A stretch of 64,000 bases of DNA from Colius striatus (taxonomy: Eukaryota > Chordata > Aves > Coliiformes > Coliidae), in contig NC_084768.1 of NCBI RefSeq assembly GCF_028858725.1, positions 29,418,664 to 29,482,663 of the forward strand, read 5' to 3'. Shown here in pieces: positions 17,613 through 53,920 of the stretch (position 1 is the first letter of the stretch; the number at the start of each line of letters is the position of its first letter). The position numbers and the translations under genes are program-made. Below the pieces are notes generated by a model that saw only the letters and a program-made list of their open reading frames with translations, did no database searches and was not told where the DNA came from.

Positions 17613-17859
17613 GTGTGCTCTCCCTTCTCCTCGGGCAGGGCTCAGGCTTGGCCTCCTCATGGGGCTGGGGCAGGGAGTCCTATGGCTCGGGCATGGCTAA
17701 ACACAGGTTCCTCTCCCTGCAGTCAGCAGGGGCTGTGGCTCCCAGCAACAGCAGGACTTGCCCAGTGGGCTTCAAGCTCTCTGCAGATGGGGCTGTGCCT
17801 GTTGGGTGCTACTTTCCCTCCCTCCCTGTCCCTGGTGCGGGCCTGCACTGTGGAGACAG

Positions 17860-26187: not shown

Positions 26188-29100
26188 TCATTTCTTATCC
26201 AGGTGGCAGTACAGGTACATGGAGACCGCCATGGCTGCGATCTGTGGGCAGCAAGAGGAGCGTCAGTACCCCCACGTGTCCCACCCCGTCACAGCTTTGG
26301 GTCACAGCCCATAGCATCCATCCCCGGGAGGAAGAGACAGCTGTTCCCAGAGAAGAAGGCTCAGTAGCCCCCCTGGGGCAGATGGTGGTCCTTCTGCAGC
26401 CCCTTGGCCACTTGAGTCGGCCCCTTACCCCACCACTCACGTCTGGGTACAGGAAGGAGGCAGCACAGTGATGCCCGGGCACTCACCTCCAAGGCAGCGA
26501 TGCCGGCTGCCACACCGCCCACCACTCCCCCGTTGGTCTTGATTTCTGTCAGGATCTGCTGGAAACAACCCTGTGGGAGGCAACCACACAGGTGAGGACA
26601 AGCCAAGGGATCCAGCCAAGGACAAGCCAAGGGATGGTGATCCCCCAACCAACCACTGGGGCCAATGACCCCAGGAAGGGAGGTGTGGGAGTGATCCCCC
26701 AGAGTCCCCAGGAAGGGAGGTGTGGGAGTGATCCCCCAGTGTCCCAAGGAAGGGAGGTGTGGGAGTGATCCCCCAGTGTCCCCAGGAAGGGAGGTGTGGG
26801 AGTGATCCCCCAGTGTCCCAAGGAAGGGAGGTGTGGGAGTGATCCCCCAGTGTCCCCAGGAAGGGAGGTGTGGGAGTGATCCCCCAGAGTCCCCAGGAAG
26901 GGAGGTGTGGGAGTGATCCCCCAGAGTCCCCGAGAAGTGCAGTTCACCCCTGGAGCTGCACAACCACAGAGATAGCCTAGGGGCTTCAAGAGGCAACCCA
27001 TCTCAGCTACTTCCCAGGCCAAAGCACAGTATTGCCAGAGGAGGAGGAGGAGGAGGAGAGGCAGGGAAACACCCAAAAAGGGCAGAGAGGTGCCTGGCTT
27101 CCCGCCCAGCTCCAGGCATGCCACCCTGCTGCAGAGCTCCCTTTAGGAGCAGAGCAATGGTGGCAGCTTTTCTTGTCACACCAGGGAGAAGCCAAGGACT
27201 TAAGGCCCATGGGATCACCATGCCCAGATCTGGAGCTACAAGAGAGATCTCCTTCCCTATGGCAAGGCACACCCCAACCCAGGCTGTGCCAGCGGGCCAG
27301 AGCGGTTGGCACGTCCGTACCGTGACATTCGATTGTGCAGCGACCGTGCTGGTGCAGGGAATCCTGTCCCTACAGCAGTAATCTGGGTAGGTGCCATGCT
27401 CCTCAAGCCAATAGGAGTTGTTGAAGTCTGTGTAGTTGTTCAGGCCACAGCATTTGAGCTAAGAGAGAAAAAGAGGAAAGGATGGGGAGAGCATCCTGCA
27501 GGTCTCCCTCCTGGGTCAGACACAGGCTCCCATGGAGGGGGTCATCCAGCTCAGCTCAGCTCTAAGGGGTGTTCAACAGCTTTCTTGGGACCAGGATTTT
27601 GCCCCACACTCCAGCATGTGCATACAGCTCTTGCCTCAGTCACAAGACTGCTGGGGCCCAAGCAGGTCAGTCCCAGGCACTCAGGAAGCAGATGGGGATG
27701 GCTCAGCACATCCAGGACTGAGACGGTGTCCCCATCCTGCTGGGTACCACCAAGTCTGTGCTGGGAGCATCCTGGGTGGGAGCCCCAGGACTCAGTGTAC
27801 CTCGTTCATGGTGAGATTCCAGATCTTTGTGAAACCATTGTCCTCCCCATACTTGTCCCTCAAGGCTGGGGTCACTGTGGCTGTCAGCAGCGTCCCTGCC
27901 TGGAAGAGGAGGCAGAGAAACACCCTCAGAGAAGGTCCTAAGGAACACCATTGAGACAAGAATCCCCATACTGGTCCCAGCCCACAGAGAGGAGACCATC
28001 CAGACTCAGCATGGCCAGGACCAAGTCACACTGCATCTCCTTGGCCTGAGGACAGCTTGGCCCCTTCCCCACTAATCAGTGCTTTATGGCCACAAGGTCA
28101 CTTATGCCCAGTGAGTCATCTGACAAGCAGTGTAAGGGAGCCAGGAATGATGTTTGCCCCACGGTTGACTTCCCCAGTGCCTAATGAGGCAGTCACCTTT
28201 CTCCCCAGGTGGTTTCTCAGGTGCCTAATAAGGGGTTGAGTTTGCTCAGCATGAAGCATTAGGGACTTCCTCCCCCATCTGGCTCCTACCCTCAGAGGTG
28301 AGAGGTGTCTGGCTTCAGCTAGTACAGGACTTAAAGGGGTTGAAAGAAAGAAGTGGGCAAAACTTGCACCATAACCCTTGTTTCTTGGGGTAATGGGAGT
28401 CCCTGTTCCCAGCACCCTCACCCCAGCCTGCCACGTCACTGGTGGGGGCAGAGACTGGCAGCCCACCTCTCTCCTTCCCCACTGTGGGCAGCACAGCCAG
28501 CCCCAGTGCCTCCTGCTCTCCCAAATTGTCACGTGAGCCCAACCCAAGGTTTGGATATACCACTCACAAGACTGGTGTAGACCAGAGCCACGACAGCAGC
28601 AGCAACTTCAGCAATGAAGATGATCAGCACCACTGAGAAGAACTGGGATACAGCAAGGGGAGGGAGGTTCAAGCAACAGCCAGAATGCACAGAGCCCCCA
28701 GGAACACATCAGGACCCTCCTGCAGGGCTCAAGCTCGCTCTCATTGACTTCAGCCCTGCTCCAAGGCAGAAGCAGCACAACCTTGGAGTCCTCCAGCCAT
28801 ATACACATGACTGACCTCTCTGGACATGCTCCAAGACAGACCCCTGCTCAGCACATTCTGCTTCCTTCCACCCTTGCCCAGGGCAGACTTTGGTTCTAGT
28901 ACTGCTTTTCCAAGGTCCACCAAGCCTTCTCCCACAAGGGAACATCAATAAGGACACCTCCTCAGAGAATTCTATCCCTCAGACCTCCCCCCACCACAGA
29001 CCCAACTCAACTGGGGCTTGATAAGGGGCTAAGTCAGGTCCATACCATCATCAGGAGGCACTTGCTTTCCTTCTGGGCACCGCAGCACCCGAGGAAGCCG

Positions 29101-30420
29101 ATGACCAGCAGGATGGCTCCAATGACAATGAGGAAGTAGCTCACATTCACAACCTGCAGGACACTAGAGGAGACTGGCCCAAATATATCCACAAACGAGT
29201 CTGAGTCTCTGGAGACCCAGATGCCAACTCCCAGGAGGGCCCCGCCACCAAGCTAGGACGAGACAGAGAGACACATCAGCTCCTGGGCAAGACAGAGGTC
29301 TGGGTTCTGAGGAAGATGCTGGCATGGGTATTTCTCCCCTTTGCAAGTTTTCACTCTGCCAAAGGAAGACTTTGAGGCCACTGAAGGTAGCTCAGAGTGT
29401 TGCCACTGAAGACTTGGTGTGGCCAGATGGACCACTACCCCAAAAGATACCCCAGCACCAAGCACGTGCCCAGCTGTGGTGTCACAGCTGCCCCTTCCTC
29501 CCTTCCCCAGCCCAAGGGGTTTCCATGACAGAAGGGGGCTAGTAGCCCTAATGCAGGGTGTCCAAGCCAGTGGCACCATGGGGCCACCTCTCTGAGCCCA
29601 GAGGGGCCCCGGGCAGCTGGCTCAAAAGCTGGCCCCCATGCCAAGTTCCTCCAGCCAGGGAAGCTGCTTACCCCCTGGCACCAGACATGCTCACTCCTGG
29701 TAAGTGCTGCCTCCAGCCTGCCCCAGTCCTGCTCTCCACCTTCCCCACCACCCCCAAGTTCCAGCAGAGGGAATGCAGTCTGGAGGCTCTGCACTCCCCT
29801 TTCCCAAGGCAATACCCCACCTCAGCCCTCCCAGGTGGCCCCATTGCTCCCACAGAGCCAGGGAAGCTCTCGGGGGCTCTAGTACCCTTTGCCCTGGGGC
29901 AGAGCAGTGGCTGTGTGTGCTCTGGAGATCACCAGCATCTGAGATCTCCAACACCACAGGTCACTGTCACACGTGGGCTGCTCTCCTACAGAAACTGAGA
30001 CCCCCCCAGGCAACTCCCAGCTCTGGGGCACTCTCCACTGGAACTTCAGCACAGGGAGGGATGTGGGTGGCTGATGCAACAGCCACTGTCCCACAGCCCA
30101 GCGCGGTCCCCTGGGCTTTGGCTGGAGCTGGAGAGCTGAGAGACCTTTGCAAGGCTGAGTCCTCACCTTGGGGCCAAAGGCCAAATCTCACACCCCACCG
30201 GCTCACCACCCAGTCTCACACTCTGCCCAGGTCCCAGAAGCCCCACCAACACCCTGCCCCCTCCATCCCCCGCGGAAGGGCTGCGGAGGGCCGGGAAGGA
30301 GACCCTCAGGCGATGAGGAGGGGGCTGCCAGGCTGGGACCCCCCGAGCAGAGCCGGCACTTACGAAGATGGCCAGGTTGAAGAGGATCATGATAACCTTG
30401 ATAAAGGTGAAGCACCCCAT
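26188..30420 (-). CDS. TSPAN1: TSPAN1, tetraspanin-1 (complete)
   Basis: Four-pass membrane protein of the tetraspanin family, which organises partner proteins in microdomains at the plasma membrane and in endosomes. Exons in transcript order (minus): 30420-30364, 29252-29046, 28642-28568, 27899-27801, 27458-27321, 26570-26487, 26241-26188. All are phase 0, giving 237 codons (human 241). Membrane segments lie at about residues 9-32, 52-75, 84-110 and 208-232. The large loop between the last two has the hallmark CCG (149-151), further cysteines at 174, 175, 181 and 194, and N-glycosylation sequons (NLT, NYT, NNS, NVT). GCCGA at 74-78 follows the second membrane segment. The ATG has A at -3 and G at +4. 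The last residues are basic (DKK). Identity as TSPAN1 rests on sequence resemblance plus its position beside POMGNT1. Three donors of this gene begin GTAC, which is unusual but valid. Confidence 0.95.
26669..26927. repeat. Seven perfect-length 37-bp tandem units in TSPAN1 intron
   Basis: Seven 37-bp units run without gaps, each like CCCCAGGAAGGGAGGTGTGG plus GAGTGATCCCCCAGNGT. Units differ only at two positions (CCCC/CCCA and AGAGT/AGTGT). The array lies in the intron between the last large-loop exons, about 100 bp upstream (minus sense) of the acceptor for exon 26570-26487. Confidence 0.97.
27040..27062. repeat. (GAG)n microsatellite
   Basis: A short run of about six GAG/AGG triplets in the TSPAN1 intron, purine-rich on the plus strand. 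Confidence 0.8.
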
Positions 30421-36492: not shown

Positions 36493-36769
36493 CTGCACCC
36501 CTGGGAGCATCACATCAACCTCCCTGTGCCTCAACCAAATACTGGGACAGCTCATCAATGCCCCAGAGTAATGGAGACTGGGTGGGGGGTGTCCATGGGG
36601 TGCAGGTCCTTCTCTGCCCTTTAGAGGATGGATGGAGACGCTGCCACCACCAACCCCCGCCCCGCATCTGTAGTTCCCCAGCCGATAGAGAAAGCAATTT
36701 TGGAGCAGAGCTGCTGCATCTAGAGATGAAATCATCCACCTGCTCTGACAGTTCCCTTCTCCCCGGTAG

Positions 36770-36945
36770 CCGGGCGGCCCCCCCACTGCAACGCGGCGGG
36801 GGAGGCCGCCCGAGGAGGGGAGGAGGAGGAGGAGGGATGCTGACATCACCGCCGGAGCTCGGCTCGGCTCGGTGGGGCCGGTCCGGCTCCATTCCCGTTC
36901 TCCGCTCCCGTTCTCCGCTCCCGCCGGGAGAAGCAGCCGCGCCCG
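36770..36945 (+). promoter_or_regulatory. PIK3R3: PIK3R3 CpG-island promoter and candidate non-coding exon
   Basis: A CpG-dense block with a purine run, TGACATCA (ATF/CRE-like, about 36839-36846) and GCTCGG repeats, followed by duplicated CCGTTCTCCGCTC. It ends in a good donor (GCGCCCG|GTAAGG, GT at 36946). A non-coding first exon of roughly 90 nt spliced to the start-codon exon is likely. A second CpG cluster at 37320-37420 could be an alternative start. Confidence 0.5.
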
Positions 36946-36996
36946 GTAAGGCTGAAGGGGGCAACGGAAGGGGTTTGGGATGCTGTTTATCATCCC

Positions 36997-37018
36997 TCCA
37001 TCCATCCATCCATCCATC
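36997..37018. repeat. (TCCA)n microsatellite
   Basis: About five and a half TCCA units, in the candidate first intron of PIK3R3. Confidence 0.85.
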
Positions 37019-37740
37019 ATCTTTCCTCCGCGGGGTCCTGCAGGAAGCCGGGGGGCAGCGGGTTGGAAGCAGCACAGCCTTTTCTCCTCCCCGGGGAAGA
37101 TGTCACTCTCAGAGGAATCTTTTAAAATGCACCAAAAACCTTCCCTCCCCCCCCCAGAAAAAACCCCTCTGAAAATGGTCTTCATCCGGCAGCTCCGTGC
37201 AGCGCTGCCAGGCGGGAGCTGCCGGAGGGGACTTGCGTGCAGGCAGGAGGTTTCTCAGCACATATGTCTATTTTAAAAGCCCGTGGTGTGATCTCTTGCC
37301 CTACTTTCCAGACTCTTGCCGGTACTTTCCTTGCGTGCAGCGGCCGAGCGGTGCCGGCGGGAGCTCCCTGGGAAGCGGGAGCCGAGGAGCCGCTGGGCTC
37401 TCCCCGCTGCCGGGGGGGTGGGATGGGGGCCAGGGCACAGGAATTGGGCTCAAGACAGCACTTTGGTCACTAACACGCCGCCTTTCCCTCCGGCAGAGAA
37501 AGGAAGCCCCTCAGCGCGGATGAGAGCCGGCTGGGAAGAGGACGGCGCGTTTGTGCCCAGCGCCCCAACCAGCCTCATCCGCTCCCGTTTGCCCTGGCGA
37601 TGAAAAGCCTCCCTGCCCACACCTGAGCCAACCCTGCGTGGCTCTACAGCGATTCTGGGGGCCGGAGGGATTAGGCACCACTCTCCAAGGTGGAGGTTTT
37701 TCCAAGGCTGAGCTTTTCCTCGTGGTTGAGCGGTGCAAGG

Positions 37741-37808
37741 AGCGCTCCCCCCCCGCTGCCAGGAGCGCTGCCCCCCCGCTGCCAGGAGCGCTCCCCCCCG
37801 CTGCCAGG
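37741..37808 (+). repeat. PIK3R3: Triplicated 22-23-bp unit, each a 3' splice-site look-alike
   Basis: Units 37741-37763, 37764-37786 and 37787-37808 read AGCGCT(C/G)CCCCCCCGCTGCCAGG. Each has a pyrimidine tract followed by CCAG, so acceptor AGs lie at 37761-62, 37784-85 and 37806-07. A fourth AG is at 37849-50, just before the PIK3R3 start codon at 37865. Any of these could begin the start-codon exon. Confidence 0.85.
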
Positions 37809-37864
37809 AGCGGGCATCCCGGGCCCCGATGCCCGGCTGCGTGTGGGCAGCGTGAGCCACGGCC

Positions 37865-40800
37865 ATGGGCTCCTCGGACGGGCTGCAGTACCGGGCTCTG
37901 TACGAGTACCAGAAGGCCCGGGAGGAGGAGCTGGCTCTGTGCCCCGGGGATGTGCTGACGGTCAGCAGGGCCGGCGACTACAAGGAGGGGGACGAGCGCA
38001 GCCCTCAGGGTTGGCTCCACGGCCTCAACGAGCGCACCAAGGAGCGTGGCAACTTCCCCGGCACCTACGTGGAGTACCTGGGTCCTGTACGGATCGGCAG
38101 CGCCGGCACCAAGGCCAGGCCACGGCCCGTGCCCCCACCGCCCGCCGGGACCCCCACAGCCCGGGGTGAGTGCTGGGAAGGTGGGAGCTCGGGGGGGGTG
38201 AGCCCTGCAAGATGGCAAGGGCGGCGTGGAGCCCGGGTGGATGCTTGCATTTGGGATGACTCGGTCTTTGGGATGGGGATCCGACCCCATGAGAAGGAGC
38301 TGCCCCGGGAATTATCTGCCCCGGTGCATGGAGGCAGTGTGGGAGAGGCAGGGGGTGCCCAGGATACTGCTCCCCTCCAGGCAAACACACTGCAGGGATC
38401 GCTCCTCTACGGCATCCTTGGCTGACTGTGCTGGTGTGGGCTGTGAGAGGGGGTCCATGGCCGTGGGAGCTCAGGAGAAGACACAGGAGTCCTTTGACCC
38501 ACCTAGGGAGGAGCAGAAAGCTGCACAGTGCTCCCCGGGGACCTTTGTTCCCCAACTGCTCTTCTCCCCACCACTGCGGCACCCAGTTGTGTCTGCTCTC
38601 AGTGCCCAGGTGAGTGCTGGCCCCCAGCCAGCTCCTGGGCTCACTGTCACTTTGTGCAAGGTGGGACAAGGGATGATCATGGCAGGTGATGGGGTTGGTC
38701 TCTGGGGAGGAGGCTTCTTTGTGCCCAGGGGCTGCAGCACGGTGCTGGGGGGAGGGTATTTGGCAGGGTCCTTCCTGACACGGGGGGCCTCGACCCATTT
38801 CTCTACTGGGATCTGCCGAGCTCATGCAGCCGCCTCTGCTCTCACCACTCCCCGTGGCCAAGTGTGTTGGGGCTGGGAGGGGTTTCTCAGCAGTTGCATA
38901 ATGTACCCAAGCTAAAAAAAACCCCAGCAAAGTAAGAACCCCCCGTTCCAGCCAGGCATGAGCCAGTGACCCAGGCCAAAGCCCTGGTGCTCCTCTTCTC
39001 AAGGATGTGATGGAGAAGTGTCTGTCCGTGTGGGCCAGCGGCTGTGGGAGCTGCAGTGCCCTTAGCCATGGCTGCCCAAAACCTGCCTGGCTGCTGACCC
39101 AGTGCCTTGGGCACCCTCCTCACCCAGCTTGGGACTGGGTGCAACTGGAGAGGCCGTTTTCCTTCTGGACTGGGTAGGCACTGGAGGTACCTTAGTGCTG
39201 GGTTTAGAGGGACACCCACTGATGAGAAATCCATCTCCCTCCTAATAAGGTTCAAGGTCCCCTTGTCACCGTGGTTAAAGAGGTGGGGACCACCTGGCCA
39301 CTGGGCTGAGCATGGCAGGACTGAGCTCTAGCAAACTCAGTGCTGTAGTGTGTACAACTCTGGTCAGACAAGAGCCAGACCCAAGGATGCTTCAGCCCAC
39401 TTCACCAGGGAAAAGTGTGAAGCCACCTTCTTGCTTCTGCCCTTGCTGCCCATCACCATGGCCTCACACACCTGCCCCACGCAGGGGGGGGTCTCTTCTC
39501 AGAGGGGCTGGGAGACGTGCCCAGGGACCCCTGCCCACAAGTGCCAGGGACATGGCAATGCCCCACAGATGAAGGCACGTCCCCAGCAGCAAGCACAGCC
39601 AGGCTGGAGAGGGTGCTGCTGTCTGCAGGACAAGCTCTGGCCGATGGCTCAGTGTCCAGCCCCTCGGTCCGGGGAGTCGTTAGGTGCTGTGCCCTGGGGT
39701 GCCACTCCACGGGTGACTTTGCAGGGGCAATGCCAGGGTGTGCAGCTGGAGGAGGTCCCCTCAGCAGGGGACACTCGTGGCACATGACCGCATCTTTCTG
39801 CAGCAGCAGAGCAGCATGTGCCATTTTATGCTGGTTTCAACCCAAACCTCCTGACTGGTGGGGTTTCCCTTTGAGTAAAAATCTCCATCACAGTCTTGGA
39901 GGAGAAGGGACTATATATTTTTTTACTATTATTTGGAAAACTCACCCTGCACTATTTCCATTCCTAGGTGGAGGTTTTGAGGGACATTTGGTTTGGCCAT
40001 CTTGGATGCTTATTTTTCCGCAGCAGTGGCTTACTGCTCCGTGTGTCCTCAGTGCCCACTGAGCCCCACTGCTGGCTGGGCACTCGGGGCAACTTGAGCA
40101 TGGTGAAGCCCTGGGGGAAACCCTGGGTAGGAGAGAGGATACATTTCCCAGGCATGCTCAGAGCCAGGGCTGGCTCTGCAGGGAGCAATGGTCTCTTTTA
40201 GGTTAGTATTTAAACAAACCAAAGCAATGCTTCTGCAGTGAATCTGAGTCCCAGGGGGACTTCCCAGGAGTTTGGTGGCTGTTTTGCCCCTGCCTGGTTG
40301 CCCTGGGTGGCATCACTGCTGCGAAGCATTGGCTCTGCTTCCTCCGGGGCCAGAGCCAAGCAGTGAGTCAGGATGCTGGGGTGCAGCCTGAGGGAAGAGG
40401 ATGGGCTAAAGCTCCAACCTTGAGGCTATTCCTGCTGCTTCCAGCAAGGAGAAACAGTGGGTTATAATTTTTTTGCCATCATTGCCTTATCCCAAACCAT
40501 CACCTTGGAAGCCAAAACCCAGTTTTCCCAAATTCAAAACCCACCCATGTGGTGGGAACATTTTCTAGAGGCTCCCAACCTCCTGCTTTGCTTTAAACCC
40601 TGAAATCTTTCCTGTTCCTGCCTTGTGTGGACACAACCTCACCAGGCAGGGCAGGGGACCCTGGTGCCAGGTCATGGTCTTGTCCACAGATTTTTCTGGG
40701 GGTTTTTTTGTTCTTTTTCCATTCCTTTAAAACCATGATGGGTTTAATGGCTTCACACACGAGTTCTCTGTCTTCTGCCAGGCAGCAAAAACCAAAGATA

Positions 40801-43800
40801 GAATGAAGGCTGGAGCTGGCTGGGCTGGGGTATGCCACACTCAGAGGTTATTTAATTTGCTATCATTTTTTGAAAGTAATATTTCCACCAGGATGGGTCC
40901 TCTCACCACATAAACCAGGCAGGAGACCTCTTGACACAGCAGCTTTTCCAGATGCCATCTGCATCCCGGCAGTTGCACGCAGCTCTGGTGTGCTGCAGCC
41001 CCTGATTGTCCCCTGTCACTGCCCAAGGCCTTCCTGGGGGGATTCAAAGCCACTAATGAAAGATTGTGGGGAGAGAATTGCAATGCTGTCAGGATCTGTC
41101 AGGTATAACCCACATAGGTTGAGGAGGGAGGAGGGATGAATGGATAGATGGAGCATGTCCTGAGGTAAGAAGAGGTTCTTTCAGCCCTGCCAGGGGAGTT
41201 GCTGCTCTCTGGCAGTGTCTGGGATAAGATTTATTTTGTATAAAACCTAGGAGGCAGCAGCAGTTGGGGATTTGTGCCGTGGGAAGCCTGGCCCATGGTT
41301 GGCTGAAGGGCTCCTCGAGGGCTGGTGCAGGTCTGCGTCAGCCAAAGAGATGGCTGAGCCCTCTCTGGGCCTGTTCTCAACCTTAGTGTAGAACATCAGA
41401 GAATTCAAGTGGGTGAGAGCTGCAGAGACCTATGTCCATGTCAGGTATGGATCTGGCCCCCCAGCTCCTGCCTGGTGCTGCAGAGGGCTGTGGGTGATGA
41501 GTGAAGGAGAAGTGGGAAAGGGGTTTTGGCCTAAAGGAGCTCCAGGCTCAGGGTGGGATGCTCTGCGTGGGCAGAACACGTGCCTGGGCATCTCTTTGCA
41601 TCTCACCAAGTGGCTCCTTGACTCTTATTACAAAGAGGGAATAAAATGAGGGAGAAGTTCTCCAAAACTGGACAAGTGTTGGTTGTGGCTGTGCCAAAGC
41701 AACAGCTTGATTCTGTCCTGGGGCAGCCAAGGAAAGAGGCTGGAATTCCTTCAGGCAGGAATTTTCAAGCCCCTTCTCCCTGTCTTTCTACCACAGGGCT
41801 TCCTGGGCAGGCTGAGCTCCCTGAGCACCCCCCTCTCCCTGAGCAGGCGCTGCTGACTGTCACCAGGCTCCTCGAGGCACTGGAAAAACAAGGTATGGGC
41901 ACCCAGGGCACCCGTCTGCAGGGTGCGTGTGGCCAGAGATGCCCCGAGAGCATCATCAGAGCCAGAGCTCTCCCCAACGCCTGGGCAGGGTGAGGGAAGC
42001 TGCTGATTTCAGTCCCTGCCTCCTTCCATGGCACTGGAGGAGGGATTTGGGGCTCAGGACTGAGCCTTCTCTCCTGGTTGCTCCCCAGGTCTTGACAGCG
42101 AGGTGCTGTGCAGGGCCAGCCCTGGCGTGCTGGGGGATGCTGAGCTGAAGCAGGCTCTGCTGGCAGGTAAGTGCCCGTGTCCCTGGGCAGGGGGTGGTGG
42201 GGGAGGTGATGCTGCCAGGTGAGCCTGGCACAGTGGGGATGAGCCACTGCCTCTGACCTCTTTATGGCCCTGACTACAGCTCTGTAAGGCCCTGCCTGTG
42301 TGTGAGACCCCCAGTGCCCTCAGACAGTGTGATGCTGCCAAGGGGGATGCAGGTGTGGGGCTGGGGCACCTCGCTAGAAGACCTATTTTATTCGGTTTAT
42401 TTTAGGCAAAAGCCCCATTTTGTTTAGCAAACCTTTAGATCTGAGGAATGGGGCAAGGGGAAAAAGCCTCTTGTGGGTGTGATTGGGGAAAATGTGAAGG
42501 AAAAGCTCATATATTTTAGGAAAATGGGAAGAGTTTTGCAGGACTAGTGAAGCATGAGCAGCGGCGAGGGGGAGGGAAAAACCATCTCCCCTCCACCCCG
42601 TTGCCCAGTTCGCGGCTGGGATGGCACAGGGGCGTTGGGGGGGTGATGGAGCCAGCGTGCAGCTCTGACCGGGAGCCGGGGGTGAGCCGAGCATCTCCAT
42701 CCTCCCGGCCGCGGTGCCCAGAGGGCGGCACTGTGGCACCAGGCACGGCCCGGCTGTGTCCCCCCCGGCCCCGGCTGTGTCCCCCCGGCCCCGGCTGTGT
42801 CCCCCCGGCCCCGGCTGTGTCCCCCCGGCTGTGCCCCCCGCCGCCGTGGGGCTCGGCATCCCGGAGCTGCGGCACGGCGGGGGCGGAGCGGGGGGCGGCG
42901 GCGGCTGTGCCAGCGCCGGGAGCCGGCGGCAGCCGGGCCGTGTTGCTGGGGAGAAAGGGCTGTGATGAAATCGCTATATTCGGCAACATGACCTCATCGC
43001 TTCCCCCGCGCACCGGGAGCCGAGTCCCCGCCGGGCGGGTGACGGGCTGCGGAGAGGGAAGGGATGCAGGAGAGATGTTGCTGGGGGAAGGATGCGGGAG
43101 AGATGGTGCTGGGGGATGCGGGAGAGGAGTTGCTGAGAGATGCAGGAGGTGCTGGGAAGCTTAAGGCTGCTCTGTGCTCTCTGCCCGAGGAGGGCTCCGC
43201 TTCCCCAGGGATGATAGGGGGCATGGGGCACTCAACCACCCGGCTCTTCTGCCCTTGAGGAAGCCTTTGCTGCAGTCTGAGAAGGGCAGGAGCGATGGGG
43301 TGCTCTTTTGCACAGCCTTGTTTCGCAGCCCAGATTTCCCATCTGAGGGGGTGAAGGCAGCTGGTGATGAGTCCCTGTAGCCCCGGCTATCCTGGGCACT
43401 GGTGCCCAGCCTGGACAGGGCAGAGACAGCAGCGTGAGAAGGATGCTTTGCTTTCTGAGCACACAGGGGTTCCGAGTTGCCAGTGCAGGCACAGGGCTCC
43501 CTGGCAGCACTGCAGTGGTCATTACCCAAATCCTGCCCAGCCTCAGGTCGCTCCCCCAGCCCAGGGGCAAATTCAACTGTCTTTGGCAGAGCCTGGGCTG
43601 CAGATCTGAGCAACTCCTGGCTCCATCCAGGTTTTCATCTCCCACTGCAGGACCCAGCCCTCAGCAGGGAAATGCCATCATGGTTTTCAAACCATTTGAA
43701 AGCCCCAAAAAACCTCCAACAGCCATGAGTGACCTGATGCTCCTTGAGCCCCCCATTTCCTCTAAGACTTAAATAACCTCTTTCATTTGGCAACTCAGGG

Positions 43801-46800
43801 GGCTGCCCTGTGTGCCCAGCAACACTGAGCTAGGCAAAGCCAGAGCTCCACAGAGCTGGCTGGGGGTGTAGGATATGTTGTGCATTTGCTGTCTCTCAGG
43901 TGAAGTGGCTGATGCTCAGCCCTGCCAGAGGGATGCTCTGCAAACAGGACGGGGATGACATTCCTGCCAGGGGCAATGCATGCTAGCAGAGCCCAGGCTT
44001 GGCAGTCTGCTCCCCACACAGCTTCCTGCATAGACCCAGCTTCCTCAGGGCCCTGCTGGAGCCCAAACCAGCCTGGGGAGGGCAGAAGAGCATCTCTGCT
44101 TCGGCCCCCATACAGGCTCTTTCACTGCATTTGGTGGAGCAAAACATCCCTGCCAAAAAAAAGGGGGAGTTTGTATGCCCTGTGTGTGAGGGTCACCTTT
44201 CCTTTCCTCCTGTACTCCCAATGGTCCACCCCTACAGCATCACATCTCTGCCAGCAGCCTGCCTCCAAAAACCAAGCTCCATCTTGGACAATGGGGAGAA
44301 ATCAGAGCCCAGGCTGCTAGAGGCTTCAACTGAACTGTGTCTTGGCTTGGGGGAAAAGCAGGTTCCCACCGGGGGTTTCATCTTCCTTTTGAATACTCAA
44401 ATCATACTGATGTTTGGCACTGGTGGGCCTTCCTTTGAATACACAGATCCCGCTGGTGTTTGGCACTCGTGGCAGGAAAACTTCTAGAGAGTGCAAGGAA
44501 AGAGGAGTAAGGGCTGCAGAAGTTGTCTATTGGTTTTCTAACCCTCAAATCTTAATGTATTGGAGAAAACAGAATGTTCTACACTGAAAGAGCATCTGAA
44601 TTCGTGGTGGGGAGGAGAAGGAGAAGGTTTCTCTGAGGACAAGGAGCTGTGCAGGTTAGAGTGGTGCTGGCTATGCCAGGGAGGCCACAAGCATTGTGTC
44701 CCTGAGGCTGGGCAGTGCAGGCACCCATCTGAGTCATGCTGATCAAATCCTTTCCCCATCCCTTTCAGAGCCCTTACCCTGGGGGTTCTAACCTGAGAGG
44801 GCGGCCCCTGAGTTGAAGTTGCTGTTTCAATATTGAACCGTGAGCCAAGTGACTCTGATGCCCCTGGGGCTGGCAGGTGACGCACAGAGGGAAGGGTGGT
44901 TGGGCTCACAGCCTGCTTACCCTGGCTCCAGAGGAGAGTTGTTTTAGGACACTTGGTGTTTCATTCAGACCCTTACACCCTGAGAGGCGAGCAGGGGCCG
45001 TGTGACACCACTGAGCACTGGAGTGAGAGTCAGCACCAAAAAGGGACATAAAGAAAAGGCCCAGGGGCCTGGGAGGACAGTGGGTGATGAGCCATCCGGG
45101 AGCCCCACTGCAGCCACAGGGAAGGAGCTATGGGCAGGGAAAGAAGAAAGTAGAGCTTTAAATGGCAATGGCAGGGTGCAGGACTCACCCCGGCTGCCCC
45201 CAGGTGTGAAGCTGCTGCATGGCCTGGGGACATCTCTGTGCTTATAGAAGCCAGGGGCCACATGCTGACCCCAAGGAGTCCCAGCTCCCAGCACTCCTGC
45301 TGTCCCCTGTGTGAGGCTGAGGGGCTGTTTGGAGCACAGGGGCTGATGCAAATCACCTGCAAAGTCCCCGGTGCTTGTGAGGGAGAGCTGTGTAAGAGAA
45401 TCATAGATTCATCTCAGTTGGAAAAGACCTTTAAGGTCATGGAGTTCAACCACTGCCCTCACACTGCCAAGCCCATCACTAATCCATGGCCCTCAGCACC
45501 TCAGATGTGTGTCTTTGCAATACCTCCAGGGCTGGGGACTCCACCACCTCCATGGGCAGCCTGGGACAGTGTCTGACAACCCTCTCAGGGAAGAAGTTCT
45601 TATCTCCAATCTAAACCTCCCCTGGTGCAACTTGAGGCCATTTCCTCTTGTCCTGTTGTTCATTACTGGGGAGAAGAGACTGACCCCCACCTCACTACAA
45701 CCTCCTTTAGGTAGCTGTAGAGAGTGCTCACGTCTGCCCTCAGCCTCCTCTTCTCCAGGCTGAATACCCCCAGCTCCTTCAGCCGCTCTTTATCAGACTT
45801 GTGCTGCAGACCCTTCCCCAGCTCTGTTGCCCATCTCTGGACACACTCCAACACCTCAATGACCTTCTTGTAGTGAGGGGCTCAAAACTGAACACAGTAT
45901 TTGAGGTTCAGCCTCACCAGTGTGAGCCCCTCCAGTGCCTGGCAGTGATGCCCTCTCACTCCATACAGCCTTCTCCTCTCAGCTGCTGCTGAACCTGGAA
46001 ACTGATGGGTGCTAGAGCCCTTTGGAGCTGAGGGAGGCTTGTCACAGGGATGGCTGTAAAGTCCTGTGTGGAGTGGCTGGGCAGTGCTTTGCCACCACTG
46101 GGTAGGGATGGGCTGCACCCTCCTTCCTTGTTAGGAATGTGGCATAAAGACTCTGCAGGACCCCTCACCCCAGGGCTCCCTCCGTTTCTGACAAAGCACA
46201 GAAACTTCCCCCATTTTGGCCAACCTGTGCCCCAGATGGCTCAGAGGGGGCTGATCTCATCCAGGACACTGGCAAAGCACAGAAACTTCCCACATTTTGG
46301 ACAAGCCGTGCCCCGGTCTGAGCTCTGGCATCCAGCTGCAGATGGGAACACCGAGACCCTTCCCCAGCTGCAGGAGCAGCCGTGGGAAATGCCCGTGCTG
46401 TTGTCAGGGCCGGGCAGAGGCTGCCTGAGCCTCGGGGTGCGGGATTGGAGCCGGTGTCTCCAGGCGTGCCGCGGCTGCGCTGCCGTCCTGCTCGCTGTCA
46501 TCTCGCCCGCTCTGCCTGGAGACACGCTCACACGCCCCGCAATTGGGTCAGGGCTCGCTGGGGATTAACCGAGCGCTGGTCGTGGGCCCTGGGGGCTTCG
46601 CTGGGGCTGCCAGGAGCTGCTGCTGGGCAGAAAGGGCTGAGCTGGAGGGGAGGGCAGCCCAGGGGACCTCACGCCGTTCCCCTCATCGTTGAGACGCGGA
46701 TGCCCAGGGAGGCAGCGCATCCCCATCCTCATCCCTGAGATGCCTGAGGAGGTTTGGAGGCTCCCGAGGGCTCTGGTTTCCCCTGGCCAAGCTATTAACC

Positions 46801-49800
46801 AGCCCTCAACGCCTTCGCTCCCGAAGCCCGGGCGCCCCGGTGCCTGCCGCGCTGCTTTTTATTTATACCTGCAGTAGAAATAACCCGTGTGTCATCAGAG
46901 CCTGGCGACAGGCATGAGCTCAGCTCTTATATTTGGTGGTGACGAAAGAAGGGTAAATAGATGGCAGCGGTGCAGACATCCCTGCCAGACCCACGGGGCC
47001 GGACTGGGGGTGAGCTTTCGCCATCCCCTCCCCTAGCTGCTGGGGAAACGGCCTGAGGTGGGGCAAGGCGAGGCAGTGTGACGGGGTACCCTTGAAAAGG
47101 GGTGTCAGAGGGCAAGGCAGGGGTATGCTGAGGTGAGACGCGGCTGAGGGAGGGTGTTTGAGGCTGCCAGGAGCTCCTGAGTAAGGGCAGGGGGTGTCCC
47201 AGCAGCTACCAACCCCCAGGCACAAGGTACCAGCCGACTGGCTGAGAGGTGCAGAATCAAACCTTGGGGAAATAGTCCCAGATTCGGTGCAGTTCCCCAG
47301 GAAACCCCCAGCGCGGGATGCACGGGAGGCTCAACCGCCCGGCCGGCTCGGGGGGATGTGCAGGTGCTTGCGCAGGCAGCATCCCCGGCCCCAGGGGCGC
47401 AGGCTCACCTCTGGCCACCTGCAGCGGGCAGCCGCTCACCGGCACCCGCCCAAAGCCCTCCTTCCCCTCCCCTCCTTCTCTCCACCTCTTGGCTAAACAT
47501 CCTCCGCGTTTACCGAAACTCCGCGCTTACTCAGCGCATCCCCCCCCATCCCTCCCCGAGCTCCGTCTGGCTGCGGCTGCCGGGAGAGGTGCCGGCGCGT
47601 CCTGCCCTGCCTGGCTCAGCCCAGAGCCCCGGCACCCCTCTGCCGGGACGTGGGCTCTGGCAGCACGCTGGGAGGAGGCTGGGAGCACCCGTTGCTTTCC
47701 CTCTGGGCCGGTGCTCATCCCATGTAACCCTTCCCCAGCTCCACGCTTATTCCTGCTTTTCATCCCCCATCTTTCATCCCTCTGCTGGTCCCTGCCCGCT
47801 CACTCGCTGTGCTGGCGAGTCAGCAGGCGGGTTGTGTGCTGGAGAGGGTTGCTTTGGGGTTGAGGCTGGGGTTTTGGGGTGTTTTCCTTCTATGTGTGAC
47901 AGGCAGATGGAATCCCTCCATCGCTCCCCTGGGGAAGGGACGGGAACATCTGGAGAGCAGCGGGAGAGCATTGACTCATCCTGCAGCATCATTAACTTCT
48001 TATTGCTGGTTATCATCTCCCTCTGATAAGAAGAGAGCAGCATCCCTGGGGTCAGGCCGGTGGTAATTGCCTGGGAAGGCTCCAGGGTTAACCCTTTCCC
48101 AGCTTCTGTGAGTTGCTGGGGTGCAGCTGGTGCTGGGGAACAGCAGCTCCAGGGAAAGGAGCTGGGCCAGGAGGATGCTACTGCATCTCCAGGAGGATGT
48201 GAGCAACGGGCTAATAGCTATTTCTAGCCAACATGCTGAGGAAAATGGTGCCATCAGCAACCAGTCCCTGTTAGCAGGCAGTAAATCCCCCTGGTCTCCC
48301 CACCTCTCTGTGGGTATAAAGATGTTTTTGAGCCTGGCTTTGAAACAAGCCCAGCCTTCCCTTTGAACACCCCCCCAAGCCTATGCCTAACGAAGCAGAC
48401 GAGCTAATTAGGCCGCAGTGGAGCCCTGGGCTGGTCACCTGGGGCCAGAGCCCAGCAGCAGCCCCTTCCCTGTGCAGAAACAGCTCGGGGCTGCTCTCCC
48501 CAGTCTGTGCCAGCATCCTTAAGGCGAGGGACAGGTCCCTCTGTGGCAGGCAAGGGAGAGCAGCCAGGCTCATCCCCAGTGAGAAGGGGGTTGGGGTTTG
48601 CCTGGTGCATCCCATTGGTGAGAGCAGCTCTCTGCAATGCAGTCACTTGCCCAAGCAATGAGACTCTGAGGTCTCCCAGCTGCATTCCTGACTTTTAGCC
48701 ACACACTGGGGTTTCAGCCCAAGCCAGGGTTGGAGCACCTCGTGGGATCCCTGACCTTACTCTCCTCCCGCTGCCTGGCTGGAGCCAATCTGACAGTGCT
48801 TCTCCAGGGGAAATGGTAGCAAAAATGGGAAACTGGCTGTCATCCCCCCACAAACACTGGTAGAAAGAATCCTTTTGGCCAGCTGGTCCAAAAGTGTGTC
48901 TGGGAGGTGAGAGCATCAGTGGGGCCAGGGTGCCGCAGGTGAGAGGTGGCACAGCTCTGCCCTCCTTGGGGCTGGCAGTGGCTGGGTGGGCCATGGGGTG
49001 ATGCTGTGAGGTCAGGGGGTGCCCAAAAGGCAGCAGCCACCTTTGCCCCAGCTGATGTTTGGGCACGCTGGCCGGCTGCCTGCCCTGGCGCCGTGGCAGC
49101 TCTCCCGGCTGTCCCCACGCTGCCCCGGCGCAGCTCCTGAAGATGAGGTAGTGTCTCCAATGGCTGGGTTAAAGGCTTCACTTCAGGCATTGGCCAATCT
49201 GTTTTCTCTCAGATCTCTGAGCCAAATGGCAAGCACTGGCCATAAGGGACCTGCCATGGCTTCTTGTCCCCTAGCAGGCGGAGGGGCAGGCGGGCAGGCT
49301 CCCGGGCTGGGATGCCCCAAGGAGAGGAGACCAAGGTCAAGGTGCCCAAAACCAGTCAGGGAGCTGGTCACCATCCCATCACCTCTAAAGCCTTGCCCTA
49401 GGCAGTAGATTTTCTCCACTCTTTTGGGTTTAATTGCCCCAGAAGGGAGCAAAGCCACACATGCCCAGCTGGGATGGTTGGAGGCTCAAGGTGTTTTCTG
49501 CTGGGAAATGCTGGGCTGGGAGATGGAGCATCTCCCAGAATGGCATTGATTTCAGTAAAGCTGCATTTGGGGGTAAAGACATACAGAAGGGAAGGAAAAG
49601 ATGCTTTCTTAGAGCAAGATAAACCTACCACCTTCTTCTCAATCACAACACACTGGCTATTTGGGGCCTGACGTGTCATCTTTAAGAAACTGCAAAGTCT
49701 GCTGGGGTTTCTTCCCCCAATATTCTGGTTTAGAAGAAGTGAGAAATTCCATTTCTACAAACAAGCCACTTCAAAGGACCCCAAATACCTTGAGGGGTTG

Positions 49801-52800
49801 TTTTTATCACCCCCACCCTGCCCAAGATTTCTCCTGCAAGCAGAATTTCAAAACATTGCCTTTGGCTCCAGTTTGAATCAAAGGCAGATTTTGAAACCTC
49901 CAAGTCTTTGCAAAAGGGACCATCACTCTCCCAGCAGCCACCTCCTGGCCCAGCTGGCCTGAGAGACCTCCAAGACAAACACCAAATACCAAAGGATGCT
50001 GTAAGGGCTCTTCCCCCTGGACCCTGGTGAAGCAACGGCCCTGCAGGGCTCAGACAGACACAACCCATCCTTTGGCTTCTGCTGGACCGTGGGACTTGTC
50101 TGCTCGGAGCACTACCCATGTCCTGAGCCCAAGCTGGGTGGGCTCAGGCTCCCCTGGCTGCTTTGCCCTGGTCCCTGGAGCATCCTTCACCACCTTCCCC
50201 TTTTGAGGCTGGGAGTACTGATGCCTGGGGGTCATAACTCTGTCCTACAGATGCATTTTGCCAAGTAGTTCCTCCAGAGATGGAGTTGGCACATGGTGCC
50301 TGATGGCCAGAGGGTCCCAAGCCCCATCCCTTGGGTGCTACCCTGCAGTGGGAGCCCCTGCCCCACGTGCTGGGTATAAGGTGCACACAAAGCAGAGATG
50401 TCGCCTCTCACTCTCCATGGGCACATGGAGCTCTGGGCACAGTGGAAACTGGGCCAGGAATATTTGCTGGAGGTGGGTGGCAGTGAAATCACAGGCTGTC
50501 ACACGTGTGGGATGGGGGCATGGGTGGGGAAACTGGAGCTCAGGTCCAGGGGAAAGCCTGTGGGGCTGCAAGGAGCCAGAGCAGCAGCGCTGCAGCCTAA
50601 GGGCTCCCGCCGGGTCTCTCCCTGCAGATGCCTCGGCCGTGGACATGGACCTGTACGATGCTCAGACACTGGCAGAGGCCCTGAAGTGGTACCTCCAGGA
50701 GCTGCCATCACCCCTGGTCCCCACAGCCCTCTACAGTGACTTGATCCACATGGCTCAAGGTAAAGCACAGCCGGGCTCCCCTGTGCCAGGACCAGGGGGG
50801 TGCGGGTGGGCTGCAGCAGCTTTGGGAAGCTCCTAGAAAGCTCTCCAGCATCTCCAGGGTGGCTCCTGACCCCATCCCCTGCCCAGTGCTACACTATAAG
50901 GCTGATCCTAAGAAGGCCCACCAGCAGCATCACCCTGCCCTGAAGCAGCATGGCAGATTTAGGGAGATGCTGCAGGAAAGCAGCAGCTTCACCCTGGCCA
51001 TGGCACAGCCCTCTGCCCTCTCAGTGCCCGGGGGGAGGAGGTGCTGCCTGCTGGGACCAGTGCCTGCCAGCCTTGGGTGATGCTGAAGAAGAAAGCATTA
51101 TGCTATTTTGGCTCTGCTGCCTGGGAATTTTTGACTGTAATCTCATTAACTCTTGGCTTTATATGGGCATAGAGAACTCTGTGTTTTTTCAGCTTAGTGC
51201 CGTTAGGAAGTTCCTTTGGGTCCCTGCAAGCTTTCCAGCCTTTGTCAAATGTATGAGAGCATCAAGGTTTTGATTTTATTTGAGGGGTTTTTTCATTCAA
51301 GGAAACAGGGCAGGGTTCATAGTCAAGTCACCAGGGTTCCTGGCCCATGCCAACAGGCAGCCTGGACCAAAAGCCCTTTGAAATGAGTCCTCACGGGGCT
51401 GCTCAGCCCTTCCCAGCATCACCAGCCCATCACCAGGCACGTGCCAAGCCTTTGCTCACCATCTTACATAGGACCTGGGTGCCTCACCACCTTCAAAGCC
51501 AGGGTTTGCCCTTTTGCAGCAGCAAAAGGTCGCTGCAGTGTCTGCCATCCCTGTGCACCTTCCTGTCCTAAGCCAGATTAGCACTTGGGTAGATCCTGCT
51601 CTCGGCTGCCTTAAGAGGCACCAGAAGATCACCCATGGCCAGACCAGCGTGGCCTTTTCCTACTGTGTCCTGGTGGGAAGAAGGCTCTTTAGCCTCCAAC
51701 AAGGCAGAAGAGACACACTGGGAAGATGAGGGATAACTCACACCCTCTAACTCCCTGCCCTGAGCAGAGACACAGAGCCAGGAGAAATACCCCCGGGGCC
51801 CAGGGCACCAGACTCTGCCTTCCCCTCACCTCTCAGAGAGAGGAGAAATCAAAGGCTGCCTCCTTTCCAAGGATAAAAATGCAATTAGGAAGCAATTAGC
51901 TGGGTTGCCTCGTTAAGCGACTTCAAAGGGAAGCGCCTTTCCCCGAAGCCTGTGCTGGAGTGGGCTCTGCTCCTGGCACAACGGCTTCGGGAGGAAGGGG
52001 AGGGAGAGGGGGAGGGGGCAGGAACTGAGACAAAACCGATGGGAGTTTCTCTGATGCTTTTGGAAAAAAAAAATACAGAAAAAGACAAGTGTTTCAGGAG
52101 CCAGAGCTGGTGTTCTGGCTGCCTGCCCTGCCAGCAGGCTCCTCCTGTCCCACTCCAGCCTGTGAGCTGACCACCTACAAAAGGAGGTAGAAAATATCCC
52201 CAGATTCCCCCTTCAGCTGTGGCACTTCCCCCTGGGTGCAAAAAGGTGCAAAAAGCAGCAGGTTGAGGTCAGGGAAGCCCGGGGCAAAGCTGAGCATCCC
52301 ATGGGAACAGCTCCGTGGATGCAGGGGCGCACACACACAGAGCTCATCACTATCCCCGCTGGATCCTGCACCTCCTCTGAGGTCTCTGGTGCACCCCAGC
52401 CCCGAGGATGGCAGCCAAGCCTCAGCCCCAGTGCACAGAGCCCCAGCTGAGCCGGGCTGAGAGCAAGCAGCCCCGAGGACCTCCCCGTGCCCTGCAGATG
52501 AAAGGCTGGGCCAAGGCAAGGATGGAGAGTGGCTGGAGAGCGGCTGTTTCTCATGCCCAGGGCAGGACCGCAGGCTCAGGCCACTGAGCTCACAGCTCAC
52601 AAGACTGGGGAGCCCTGGCCAAGGCTGCCAGAGGGCACAGGGACACAGGAGGATGCTGGTGGGGACACAGCGAGGCTGTGGGGCTGCTTGGAGTGCCCAC
52701 CACAGGGGTGCTGGCAGCATCTCCGTGGTGTGCAACACCATTAGGTACCCAGTTGTAATAACATGAGCAATTCAGGTGTCACTAGCAGCAGTTGCTCCCT

Positions 52801-53920
52801 AGTCAGCCCTCCCTGCTGCTGTGTTTCAAGGGGCAAGAGCAGCCACACTGGGAGGGCTACAGCACTACAACTCTGCCTGTAGCTCTCAGCCCAGGTGCAG
52901 CTTTTTTCCCTCCTAAAAAGCCTTTTCCCTCCCAGCCTGTTTTGGTTTTTCTGCAGGGGAAGGCTGAGCCTTTAAATTCAGGAGGTCTGGCAGGTGCTGC
53001 CTGCTTCACCTATTTGCTTTGCCCTGCCTTTATCAATGGCTTTGCAGGGTAGGGCTCAGCAAGGCTTTTGCTGTTCCCCTCTGCTGGAGCAGCAGTGAGG
53101 GGTGTTTGGGTGCAGTCCTTGCTAGGTGAACAGCTTAGCCCTCCTGTGCTTCCCTCACTGACTGTGCTAAGAGGGGGAAAATGTGCTCATGTCACCCCAC
53201 AACCTGATCTGAGGTGGCATGAGTGGGTAAATGGAGCTGGCAGCCTCCAGAGGGAGGCAGCTGAGATGCCCGGGACACCACCTCTTCATGCCTGGGGTAC
53301 CCATAAGTCTCATAGTCTGGCTGTGGGAATAGGTGTGCTGTAAAGAAACAGTCATTTTTTGGTAGGGGAAGGCTGAGGTCAGGTATTTTGGGGGGCTCTG
53401 TGGGGGGTTGAGACTTGCCACAGCTCATGCCATGTGCACTGGCAGGTACCAGGCTCCCCAGGAGGCAAGGGGATGTGCCAGCCTCCCCCACTGACCTTTA
53501 CTTCTCCTGTTTCCTCTCTGCTGCAGAGACTCCGGGCTTGGAGGAGTGTGGCCAGCGAGCCAGAGCCCTGCTGGCCCCCCCAGCCCTGCCCCAGCCCCAG
53601 GCACTGCTCCTGTACCAGCTCACCCACCACTTCAGCCGCCTCTGCCAGGGCACCCGCCGGAGCTGCCTCTCGCCCCGGCTCCTCGGGGAGTTCTTTGGGG
53701 AGCTGCTCTTCTGCCCCACGGCAGCCAGGTGAGGTGCCTCTGCCATGCAGGCCACAGGGCACGAGGAGGCTGCCTGCAGCCAAGCTGGTTTGGCTGAGCT
53801 GCTGCCCTCTCACAGCTCCCCTTTCTCCCTGCAGCGCCGAGGCGAGCCCCGAGCTCCGCGTCAGGATCCTCGAGTCCCTCATCGTGGCCGGCGAAGCAAC
53901 CGAGGTGCCAGCAGCCCCTG
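37865..53920 (+). CDS. PIK3R3: PIK3R3 locus, p85-like long form: SH3 and RhoGAP/BH exons (partial, 3' exons off window)
   Basis: Regulatory subunit of class IA PI3-kinase. Exons: 37865-38165, 41797-41892, 42089-42166, 50628-50759, 53527-53728, 53835-53920. All have AG/GT borders and compatible phases (895 nt, 298 codons plus one base). Residues 7-73 form an SH3 domain (RALYEY at 10-15, W50, [11 protein letters not shown] at 62-72) of the p85 type. A proline-rich linker PRPVPPPP follows at 86-93. Residues about 105-292 match the p85 BH/RhoGAP domain: GLDSEVLCR carries a candidate arginine finger at R141; [20 protein letters not shown] follows. The last exon ends after VPAAP in phase 1, where p85 continues into a proline motif and the first SH2 domain; those exons are not in the window. 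The start has a strong GCCATGG context. Neighbouring TSPAN1 argues for PIK3R3. Mammalian PIK3R3 (p55-gamma) lacks these domains, so this is a p85-like form; PIK3R2 is the alternative by sequence alone. Confidence 0.85.
38166..41796 (+). other. PIK3R3: PIK3R3 intron after SH3 exon
   Basis: A 3.6-kb intron with no recognisable coding or RNA gene. A T/A-rich patch (39895-39965, with ACTATATATTTTTTTACT) and another at 40840-40890 interrupt otherwise GC-rich sequence. Confidence 0.6.
42650..43060. promoter_or_regulatory. Intronic CpG island in PIK3R3
   Basis: A CpG-dense block about 0.5 kb after the exon ending at 42166, with GC boxes near 42880-42900 (GGGGGCGGAGCGGGGGGCGG) and CRE-like TGACCTCA at 42990-42997. 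It lies in the middle of the gene and may be an alternative promoter. No start codon in a family-like frame was found. Confidence 0.45.
42751..42833. repeat. 20-bp tandem repeat inside intronic CpG island
   Basis: Three full units CCCCCCGGCCCCGGCTGTGT (42761-42780, 42781-42800, 42801-42820) with partial units on both sides. Confidence 0.92.
43060..43150. repeat. Degenerate tandem repeat, about 27 bp
   Basis: Four decaying copies built on GGATGC(A/G)GGAGAGATG(T/G)TGCTGGGGG, shortening to the right, just after the intronic CpG island. Confidence 0.75.
43151..45397 (+). other. PIK3R3: PIK3R3 intron segment, unique sequence
   Basis: Intronic sequence between the degenerate repeat and the reversed CR1. 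I see no exon, RNA gene or strong regulatory motif cluster. Confidence 0.55.
45398..45990 (-). mobile_element. CR1 LINE 3' fragment (antisense)
   Basis: Plus strand starts GAATCATAGATTCATCTCAG TTGGAAAAGACC, then shows the CR1 3' region in reverse (TGGGCAGCCTGGGACAGTG ... CCTCCTCTTCTCCAGGCTGA ... TTGCCCATCTCTGGACACAC). It is the largest CR1 copy with the one at 2583, and lies in the 8.5-kb PIK3R3 intron. Confidence 0.92.
46192..46314. repeat. Two 42-bp direct repeats, 81 bp apart
   Basis: Copies 46192-46233 and 46273-46314 both read CAAAGCACAGAAACTTCCC(C/A)CATTTTGG and end in TGTGCCCC/CGTGCCCC. They differ at only a few positions. Confidence 0.9.
46380..50627 (+). other. PIK3R3: PIK3R3 intron, GC-rich patches then unique sequence
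   Basis: The first part has CpG-rich patches at 46400-46620 and 47290-47660. The remainder, to the RhoGAP exon at 50628, is plain intron. No exon with p85 or p55 resemblance appears between 42166 and 50628. Confidence 0.5.
51848..51910. promoter_or_regulatory. Candidate intronic element: TCF/LEF motif plus paired homeodomain motifs
   Basis: ATCAAAGG (51848-51855) is followed by GCAATTAG at 51881-51888 and again at 51892-51899, 11 bp apart, about one helical turn. It lies in the intron between the RhoGAP exons at 50628 and 53527. Confidence 0.35.

What the first reader, a model, noticed from the sequence alone, without database searches (positions are those of the whole stretch)
37865..53920. 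PIK3R3 locus carries intact SH3 and RhoGAP exons: a p85-type PIK3R3
Six exons with valid splice sites and unbroken phase encode a p85-type SH3 domain, a proline linker and a BH/RhoGAP domain directly beside TSPAN1, where mammals have PIK3R3. Mammalian PIK3R3 makes p55-gamma, which lacks both domains. Intact frames suggest birds keep the ancestral long form, so the third p85 paralogue would bind SH3 and Rho/Rab-type partners in this lineage.
Basis: partly seen in the sequence, partly recalled or inferred. Interest (0 to 1): 0.75.

Follow-up and report, generated by a model that had tools for sequence, protein, structure and literature searches.

The report
Long p85-type PIK3R3 in a bird
In this bird-like genome the gene that in mammals makes only a short signalling adaptor still carries intact exons for a full-length version with two extra domains, as well as the start of the short version, so the short mammalian form looks like a later loss.

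Summary
Six exons at 37865-53920 have GT-AG borders, one open frame and the same phases as the matching exons of both paralogues in this genome; they encode a p85-type SH3 domain, proline linker and BH/RhoGAP domain. Followed past the window, they join in frame to nine SH2/iSH2 exons 43-54 kb further on: an uninterrupted 726-residue p85-type protein. The SH2 half is 91.8% identical to (recalled) human p55gamma, but 80% and 75% to the PIK3R1 and PIK3R2 paralogues. A TSPAN1-like gene lies head-to-head; each PIK3R contig carries one of the three MAST-type loci found. The locus also keeps the p55gamma first exon, with a CpG island before it, so one gene can encode a long "p85gamma" and the short p55gamma, laid out like PIK3R1. 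The partner claim is weaker: most SH3 binding residues are kept, but the Arg that p85alpha needs to bind GTP-loaded Rab5 (R274) is Cys. No transcript or second bird genome was available, so expression and "birds in general" are inferred. My literature searches showed no paper on a p85-type PIK3R3; database annotation could not be checked.

The parts
36501..38250 (.). CpG-rich stretch over and before the first coding exon: candidate promoter of the long form
   Evidence: CpG observed/expected 0.58-0.67 in six overlapping 500-bp windows against a median of 0.18 over 453 windows of the 113.5-kb locus; 40 of the 453 windows pass the same limits, most of them elsewhere and several at no known promoter
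37829..37855 (+). 8-codon upstream reading frame in the same frame as the main ATG, closed by TGA; it marks 37865 as the first in-frame start not followed by a stop in this stretch
37865..38165 (+). exon 1: start codon, SH3 domain, proline linker (phase 1 end)
41797..41892 (+). exon 2: start of BH/RhoGAP domain
42089..42166 (+). exon 3: BH domain, with the residue matching p85alpha Arg151 (kept)
50628..50759 (+). exon 4: BH domain, 132 bp as in both paralogues
53527..53728 (+). exon 5: BH domain, 202 bp as in both paralogues; residue matching p85alpha Arg274 is Cys
53835..53920 (+). exon 6: end of BH domain; its phase-1 G joins the nSH2 exon about 43.2 kb on (outside the window, C12:29515828) in frame
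26532..30420 (-). TSPAN1-like gene, head-to-head neighbour
   Evidence: 5 matches to a recalled human TSPAN1, E 1.6e-21 to 0.67; not compared with other tetraspanins

Best explanation
The locus is PIK3R3 in its ancestral, p85-type state. From a CpG-rich start region at about 36.5-38.2 kb, exons 1-6 are spliced over a 43-kb intron to the shared SH2/iSH2 exons and give a 726-residue p85gamma (SH3, proline linker, BH, nSH2, iSH2, cSH2). From a second CpG island just before a separate first exon at C12:29500798, about 18 kb past the window, the same shared exons give a 463-residue p55gamma. The gene is laid out like PIK3R1, which makes p85alpha and p55alpha; mammals, whose PIK3R3 is described as making p55gamma only, have then lost the long start. 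p85gamma would bind and restrain p110 through iSH2/nSH2 like other class IA regulatory subunits, and in addition recruit proline-motif partners with its SH3; its BH domain is more likely a scaffold or dimerisation part than an active Rab5 GAP. Shown: exon structure, frame, domains, both first exons, orthology (with recalled human rows). Inferred: transcription, promoter use, protein partners, loss in mammals (mammalian state from the literature).
For: Unbroken 726-aa frame through 15 exons with 14 of 14 introns GT-AG; no N in the assembled stretch. Exon phases equal to both paralogues. Full p85 domain order. SH2 half 390 of 425 identical to recalled human p55gamma against 336 of 418 to PIK3R1 and 315 of 421 to PIK3R2, and the pair joined at 100 in an IQ-TREE of 5 rows. 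p55gamma first exon present, 34 of 39 aligned residues identical to the recalled human one, 33 of the 35 that are coding. TSPAN1-like gene head-to-head; three DUF1908 (MAST-type) loci found in the genome, one on each PIK3R contig, as expected of copies from the two early vertebrate genome duplications (established knowledge). Long-half dN/dS against paralogues far below 1: likelihood ratio 118.9 (with PIK3R1) and 149.9 (with PIK3R2), largest ratio still fitting 0.1 and 0.05 on the grid tried. A frame this long survived neutral decay in 9 of 400 simulations at 3% divergence and 0 of 400 at 5%, with an assumed indel rate. CpG islands at both first exons. Most SH3 ligand-site residues kept.
Against: No transcript seen. 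Paralogue dN/dS averages a very long time with saturated dS and cannot exclude a recent loss; by stop codons alone the GC-rich frame would survive 5% divergence in about 20% of simulations. The BH half is the most divergent of the three paralogues (38-40% identity against 49% for PIK3R1-PIK3R2), and the SH3 has lost 6 residues of a loop. CpG-rich stretches also occur elsewhere in the locus.
Confidence: 0.85

Rival explanations
1. The six exons are a recent relic: the long start lost its promoter or splicing a few million years ago and only p55gamma is made.
For: 43-kb gap to the next exon, fast-changing BH half, no transcript evidence; stops alone accumulate slowly in a GC-rich frame.
Against: Every splice site, phase and the reading frame are intact; CpG-rich stretch kept at exon 1; neutral survival at 5% divergence 0 of 400 with indels.
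Confidence: 0.1
2. Exons 1-6 make a separate short SH3-BH protein that ends within the 43-kb intron and is not joined to the SH2 exons.
For: Long intron; GC3 differs sharply between the halves (0.82 against 0.52).
Against: Exon 6 ends in phase 1 with a full donor (CTG|GTAAGT) and matches the phase-1 nSH2 exon, as in PIK3R1 and PIK3R2.
Confidence: 0.03
3. The BH domain keeps p85alpha-like GAP activity and Rab5 binding.
For: R151 kept; BH match to p85alpha E=2e-29. Two of the three changed places are changed in the bird paralogues too: PIK3R2 has Gln at 191 and Ala at 263, PIK3R1 has Ser at 263, so those two may matter little.
Against: R274 is Cys, while both bird paralogues keep Arg; L191 is Gln, V263 is Leu. 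In p85alpha R274A lowers GAP activity and loses Rab5-GTP binding, and L191D or V263D strongly reduce Rab5 binding (PMC5940657, passages). The published changes were to other residues.
Confidence: 0.15

Closest known systems
PIK3R1 (p85alpha/p55alpha), and its copy in this genome on C40
   Same: Same domain order, exon phases, and a separate p55 first exon in the intron before the nSH2 exons
   Different: SH2 half 80% identical; one SH3 loop 6 residues shorter in p85gamma; R274 Cys instead of Arg; the C40 p85alpha instead has Gly at R151
PIK3R2 (p85beta), and its copy in this genome on C31
   Same: Same exon phases and alignable over the whole length; SH3 the nearer of the two paralogues (50 of 75 identical against 44 of 74)
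   Different: SH2 half 75% identical; no p55 first exon found by tblastn in the 29 kb fetched, only a weak antisense match at E=0.06
Mammalian PIK3R3 (p55gamma)
   Same: SH2 half 91.8% and p55 first exon 33 of 35 residues identical to recalled human sequence
   Different: Mammalian PIK3R3 is described as coding for p55gamma only, and p55gamma homologues as lacking the rho-gap domain (PMC7458397 passages; PMC4617754 passages)

Membership tests
Class IA PI3K regulatory subunit, p85 type | SH3, RhoGAP/BH, SH2, iSH2, SH2 in this order in one reading frame | tested here: met
   Joined exons give 726 aa without interior stop; Pfam hits over cut-off for SH3_1, RhoGAP, SH2 (two stretches) and PI3K_P85_iSH2
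Class IA PI3K regulatory subunit, p85 type | Conserved exon phases of the N-terminal half | tested here: met
   1,1,1,1,2,1 in all three paralogues of this genome
Class IA PI3K regulatory subunit, p85 type | One mRNA carries all these exons | not testable with these tools
   no expression data
Class IA PI3K regulatory subunit, p85 type | Arg151 and Arg274 of the BH domain (Rab5 GAP) | tested here: inconclusive
   R151 kept, R274 Cys; this is a function mark of p85alpha rather than a family mark, and the C40 p85alpha itself lacks R151
PIK3R3 orthologue | SH2 half groups with p55gamma | tested here: met
   91.8% identity, support 100 in a 5-row tree; human rows recalled, not fetched
PIK3R3 orthologue | Neighbours TSPAN1 and MAST2 (order in human recalled) | tested here: met
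   TSPAN1-like matches at 26.5-30.4 kb; a DUF1908 locus begins 50 kb past the PIK3R3 stop; that they are TSPAN1 and MAST2 rather than paralogues rests on place and on one recalled bait, not on a tree
PIK3R3 orthologue | p55gamma-specific first exon | tested here: met
   C12:29500798-29500903, phase-1 donor

The most novel reading that the evidence does not exclude
Birds (and perhaps most non-mammals) make three full p85 subunits. The third, p85gamma, is a live SH3 adaptor whose BH domain has given up the R274-dependent Rab5 function, while the bird p85alpha has lost the arginine finger R151, so that the GAP residues are shared out differently among the three bird subunits than in mammals, and mammalian PIK3R3 is the derived, truncated case.
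Probability: 0.3. Interest if true: 0.65.

Novelty: new variant of a known kind. Interest (0 to 1): 0.55.

Why it matters
PIK3R3 is treated as the short, SH3/BH-free regulatory subunit, and the comparative study I saw passages of reports p55gamma homologues as lacking the rho-gap domain. A kept p85gamma would show that the short state is a loss rather than the founding design, add a third p85 to PI3K, PTEN and insulin-signalling models in birds, and give a natural comparison for what the SH3-BH half does beyond binding p110.

Tried and rejected
Relatives of exon 1 in prokaryote and viral contigs: none, as expected. No vertebrate collection was at hand, so between-species dN/dS was not possible; paralogue dN/dS was used instead and is saturated. 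The first codon-model run gave a likelihood ratio of 242 for the BH domain against PIK3R2, larger than for the whole half; the fit with the ratio held at 1 had not converged, and the repeat with several starts gives 102.6, which replaces it. A fold of the SH3 exon was asked for but never ran. A genome-wide search for further copies of exon 1 did not complete. Solved p55gamma structure: none among the 40 matches at E up to 1e-20, which are all named alpha or beta. NCBIfam: no match for the first 166 residues of the p55 form (a library for prokaryotes). Rfam: no match in the window. UQCRH as a further neighbour: no match with a recalled bait in the stretches held. Literature: ten searches, of which looked for a human upstream reading frame and for R274A; no listing shows a paper on a p85-type PIK3R3. 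Of the papers listed I opened four, as passages only (PMC4617754, PMC5940657, PMC7458397, PMC9127371); the 22 papers that print 'p85gamma' were seen as a listing. PMC4617754 itself writes 'p85 gamma' once, for Chondrichthyes.
Full report
What was checked. The window lies at C12:29418664-29482663 of a 1.21-Gb genome in 191 contigs. I call it bird-like from its size and from a repeat near 45.4 kb that resembles avian CR1 ends by memory; no tool named the organism. Borders: 37865-38165, 41797-41892, 42089-42166, 50628-50759, 53527-53728, 53835-53920. All six donors are GT and the five internal acceptors AG; polypyrimidine content of those acceptors is 0.72-0.89. The start codon has a good context (GCCATGG), and the nearest ATG upstream, which is in the same frame, runs into a TGA after eight codons.

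Where the exons lead. A genome scan for the inter-SH2 domain of p85 gives 9 exon matches in three loci, 3 each: C12, C31 and C40. I took 49.5 kb past the window plus the two other loci, located the exons by tblastn with a recalled human p85alpha and set their borders by hand. The C12 gene has nine further exons, ending at C12:29526522. Joined with exons 1-6 they give 2181 bp, 726 residues and a stop, without an interior stop and with 14 of 14 introns GT-AG. The two paralogues give 724 and 727 residues. Exon phases of the N-terminal half are 1,1,1,1,2,1 in all three genes, and exons 4 and 5 have the same length (132 and 202 bp) in all three.

Which gene. The SH2 half of the C12 gene is identical to recalled human p55gamma at 390 of 425 places, to the C40 gene at 336 of 418 and to the C31 gene at 315 of 421; C40 is identical to recalled human p85alpha at 403 of 418. 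The five-row tree joins C12 and p55gamma with support 100. The human rows are recalled, so this is strong but not fetched evidence. Five matches to a recalled human TSPAN1 (E 1.6e-21 to 0.67) lie on the minus strand at 26.5-30.4 kb. A search for the MAST-type domain DUF1908 found 18 exon matches in three loci, one on each PIK3R contig: 50 kb past the C12 gene, about 17 kb from the C31 gene, and about 360 kb from the C40 gene (distances to the matches). This is what copies from the early vertebrate genome duplications would look like (established knowledge), and it fits C12 = PIK3R3, C31 = PIK3R2, C40 = PIK3R1.

Long and short start in one gene. A separate first exon that matches the recalled human p55gamma start at 34 of 39 aligned residues (33 of the 35 coding ones) lies at C12:29500798-29500903, with a phase-1 donor that fits the same nSH2 exon; PIK3R1 has its p55alpha exon in the matching place, and no such exon was found in the fetched part of PIK3R2. 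CpG-rich stretches lie at 36501-38250, over exon 1, and at 80251-81750 of the assembled locus, just before the p55gamma exon; the median CpG ratio of 453 windows is 0.18. In all 40 of the 453 windows pass the limits used, and some of the others (for example 18.0-20.0, 42.5-43.2 and 46.3-48.0 kb) mark no known promoter, so this supports a promoter without proving one. The gene is thus built like PIK3R1: a long p85 start and a short p55 start.

Is the long half under constraint. Against the paralogues a codon model gives dN/dS of 0.06 for the SH3 (PIK3R2-PIK3R3), and a ratio of 1 is rejected in each of twelve comparisons (three gene pairs by four regions; eight involve PIK3R3, and the whole half overlaps its SH3 and BH parts): likelihood ratio 43 to 567 (which mends one badly converged value). 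For the pairs with PIK3R3 the largest ratio still fitting is 0.1 or less for the SH3, 0.2 or less for the BH and 0.1 or less for the whole half, on a coarse grid. dS is saturated, in several cases at the bound set, so the point values mean little, and the ratio averages over the time since the genes split. Against a recent loss, simulated neutral decay leaves the frame whole in 32% of 400 runs at 1% divergence, 7.5% at 2%, 9 of 400 at 3% and none at 5%, with an assumed 0.12 indels per substitution; counting stops alone, about 20% survive at 5%. A loss within the last few million years is therefore not excluded.

What the extra domains can do. The SH3 keeps eight of ten binding-site places that I recall for p85alpha (Y12, Y14, R18, E19, E20, W55, P70, Y73); D21 is Glu and place 52 falls in a gap, part of six residues missing from what I take to be the n-Src loop. 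The BH domain is 38% identical to PIK3R1 and 40% to PIK3R2, against 49% between those two. R151 is kept, R274 is Cys, L191 is Gln, V263 is Leu; of these changes Gln at 191 is shared with PIK3R2, and place 263 differs from human in all three genes. In p85alpha R151A and R274A lower Rab5 GAP activity, R274A also loses Rab5-GTP binding, and L191D and V263D strongly reduce Rab5 binding (PMC5940657, passages; R274 also PMC7458397, passages). A p85alpha-like Rab5 function is therefore unlikely, though the published changes were to other residues. The SH3 and BH half is also what p85alpha uses for N-terminal dimers and PTEN (PMC7458397, passages); whether p85gamma does so is open.

What is known. PMC7458397 and PMC9127371 (passages) list five regulatory subunits from three genes, with p55gamma the one of PIK3R3; the latter names p85alpha and p85beta as the larger isoforms. 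The comparative study PMC4617754 (passages) states that p55gamma homologues lack the rho-gap domain. The listings of the ten literature searches show no paper on a p85-type PIK3R3. Gene annotation databases were not at hand and may already hold predicted long isoforms, so I claim a new variant of a known kind and not a first sighting.

Noticed in passing
window 17848-20194: A 20-bp unit repeated 117.6 times (93% matches), GC-rich, open in three frames of the minus strand; next to a CpG-rich stretch at 20.0-20.75 kb.
   Followed up: no
window 26662-26931: A 37-bp unit repeated 7.3 times (96% matches) between two TSPAN1-like matches.
   Followed up: no
C40 PIK3R1 exon 3, locus L028:6429-6503: The p85alpha of this genome has Gly at the place of human Arg151, the arginine finger of the BH domain, while PIK3R2 and PIK3R3 keep Arg.
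   Followed up: partly
window 37865-53920 (PIK3R3 exons 1-6) against the SH2 exons downstream: Third-position G+C is 0.82 in the long half and 0.52 in the SH2 half of the same gene; such GC-rich exons could be missing from older assemblies (inference).
   Followed up: no
window 42501-43250: A CpG-rich stretch in the intron after exon 3, with a 20-bp unit repeated 4 times at 42749-42829, at no first exon that I know of.
   Followed up: no
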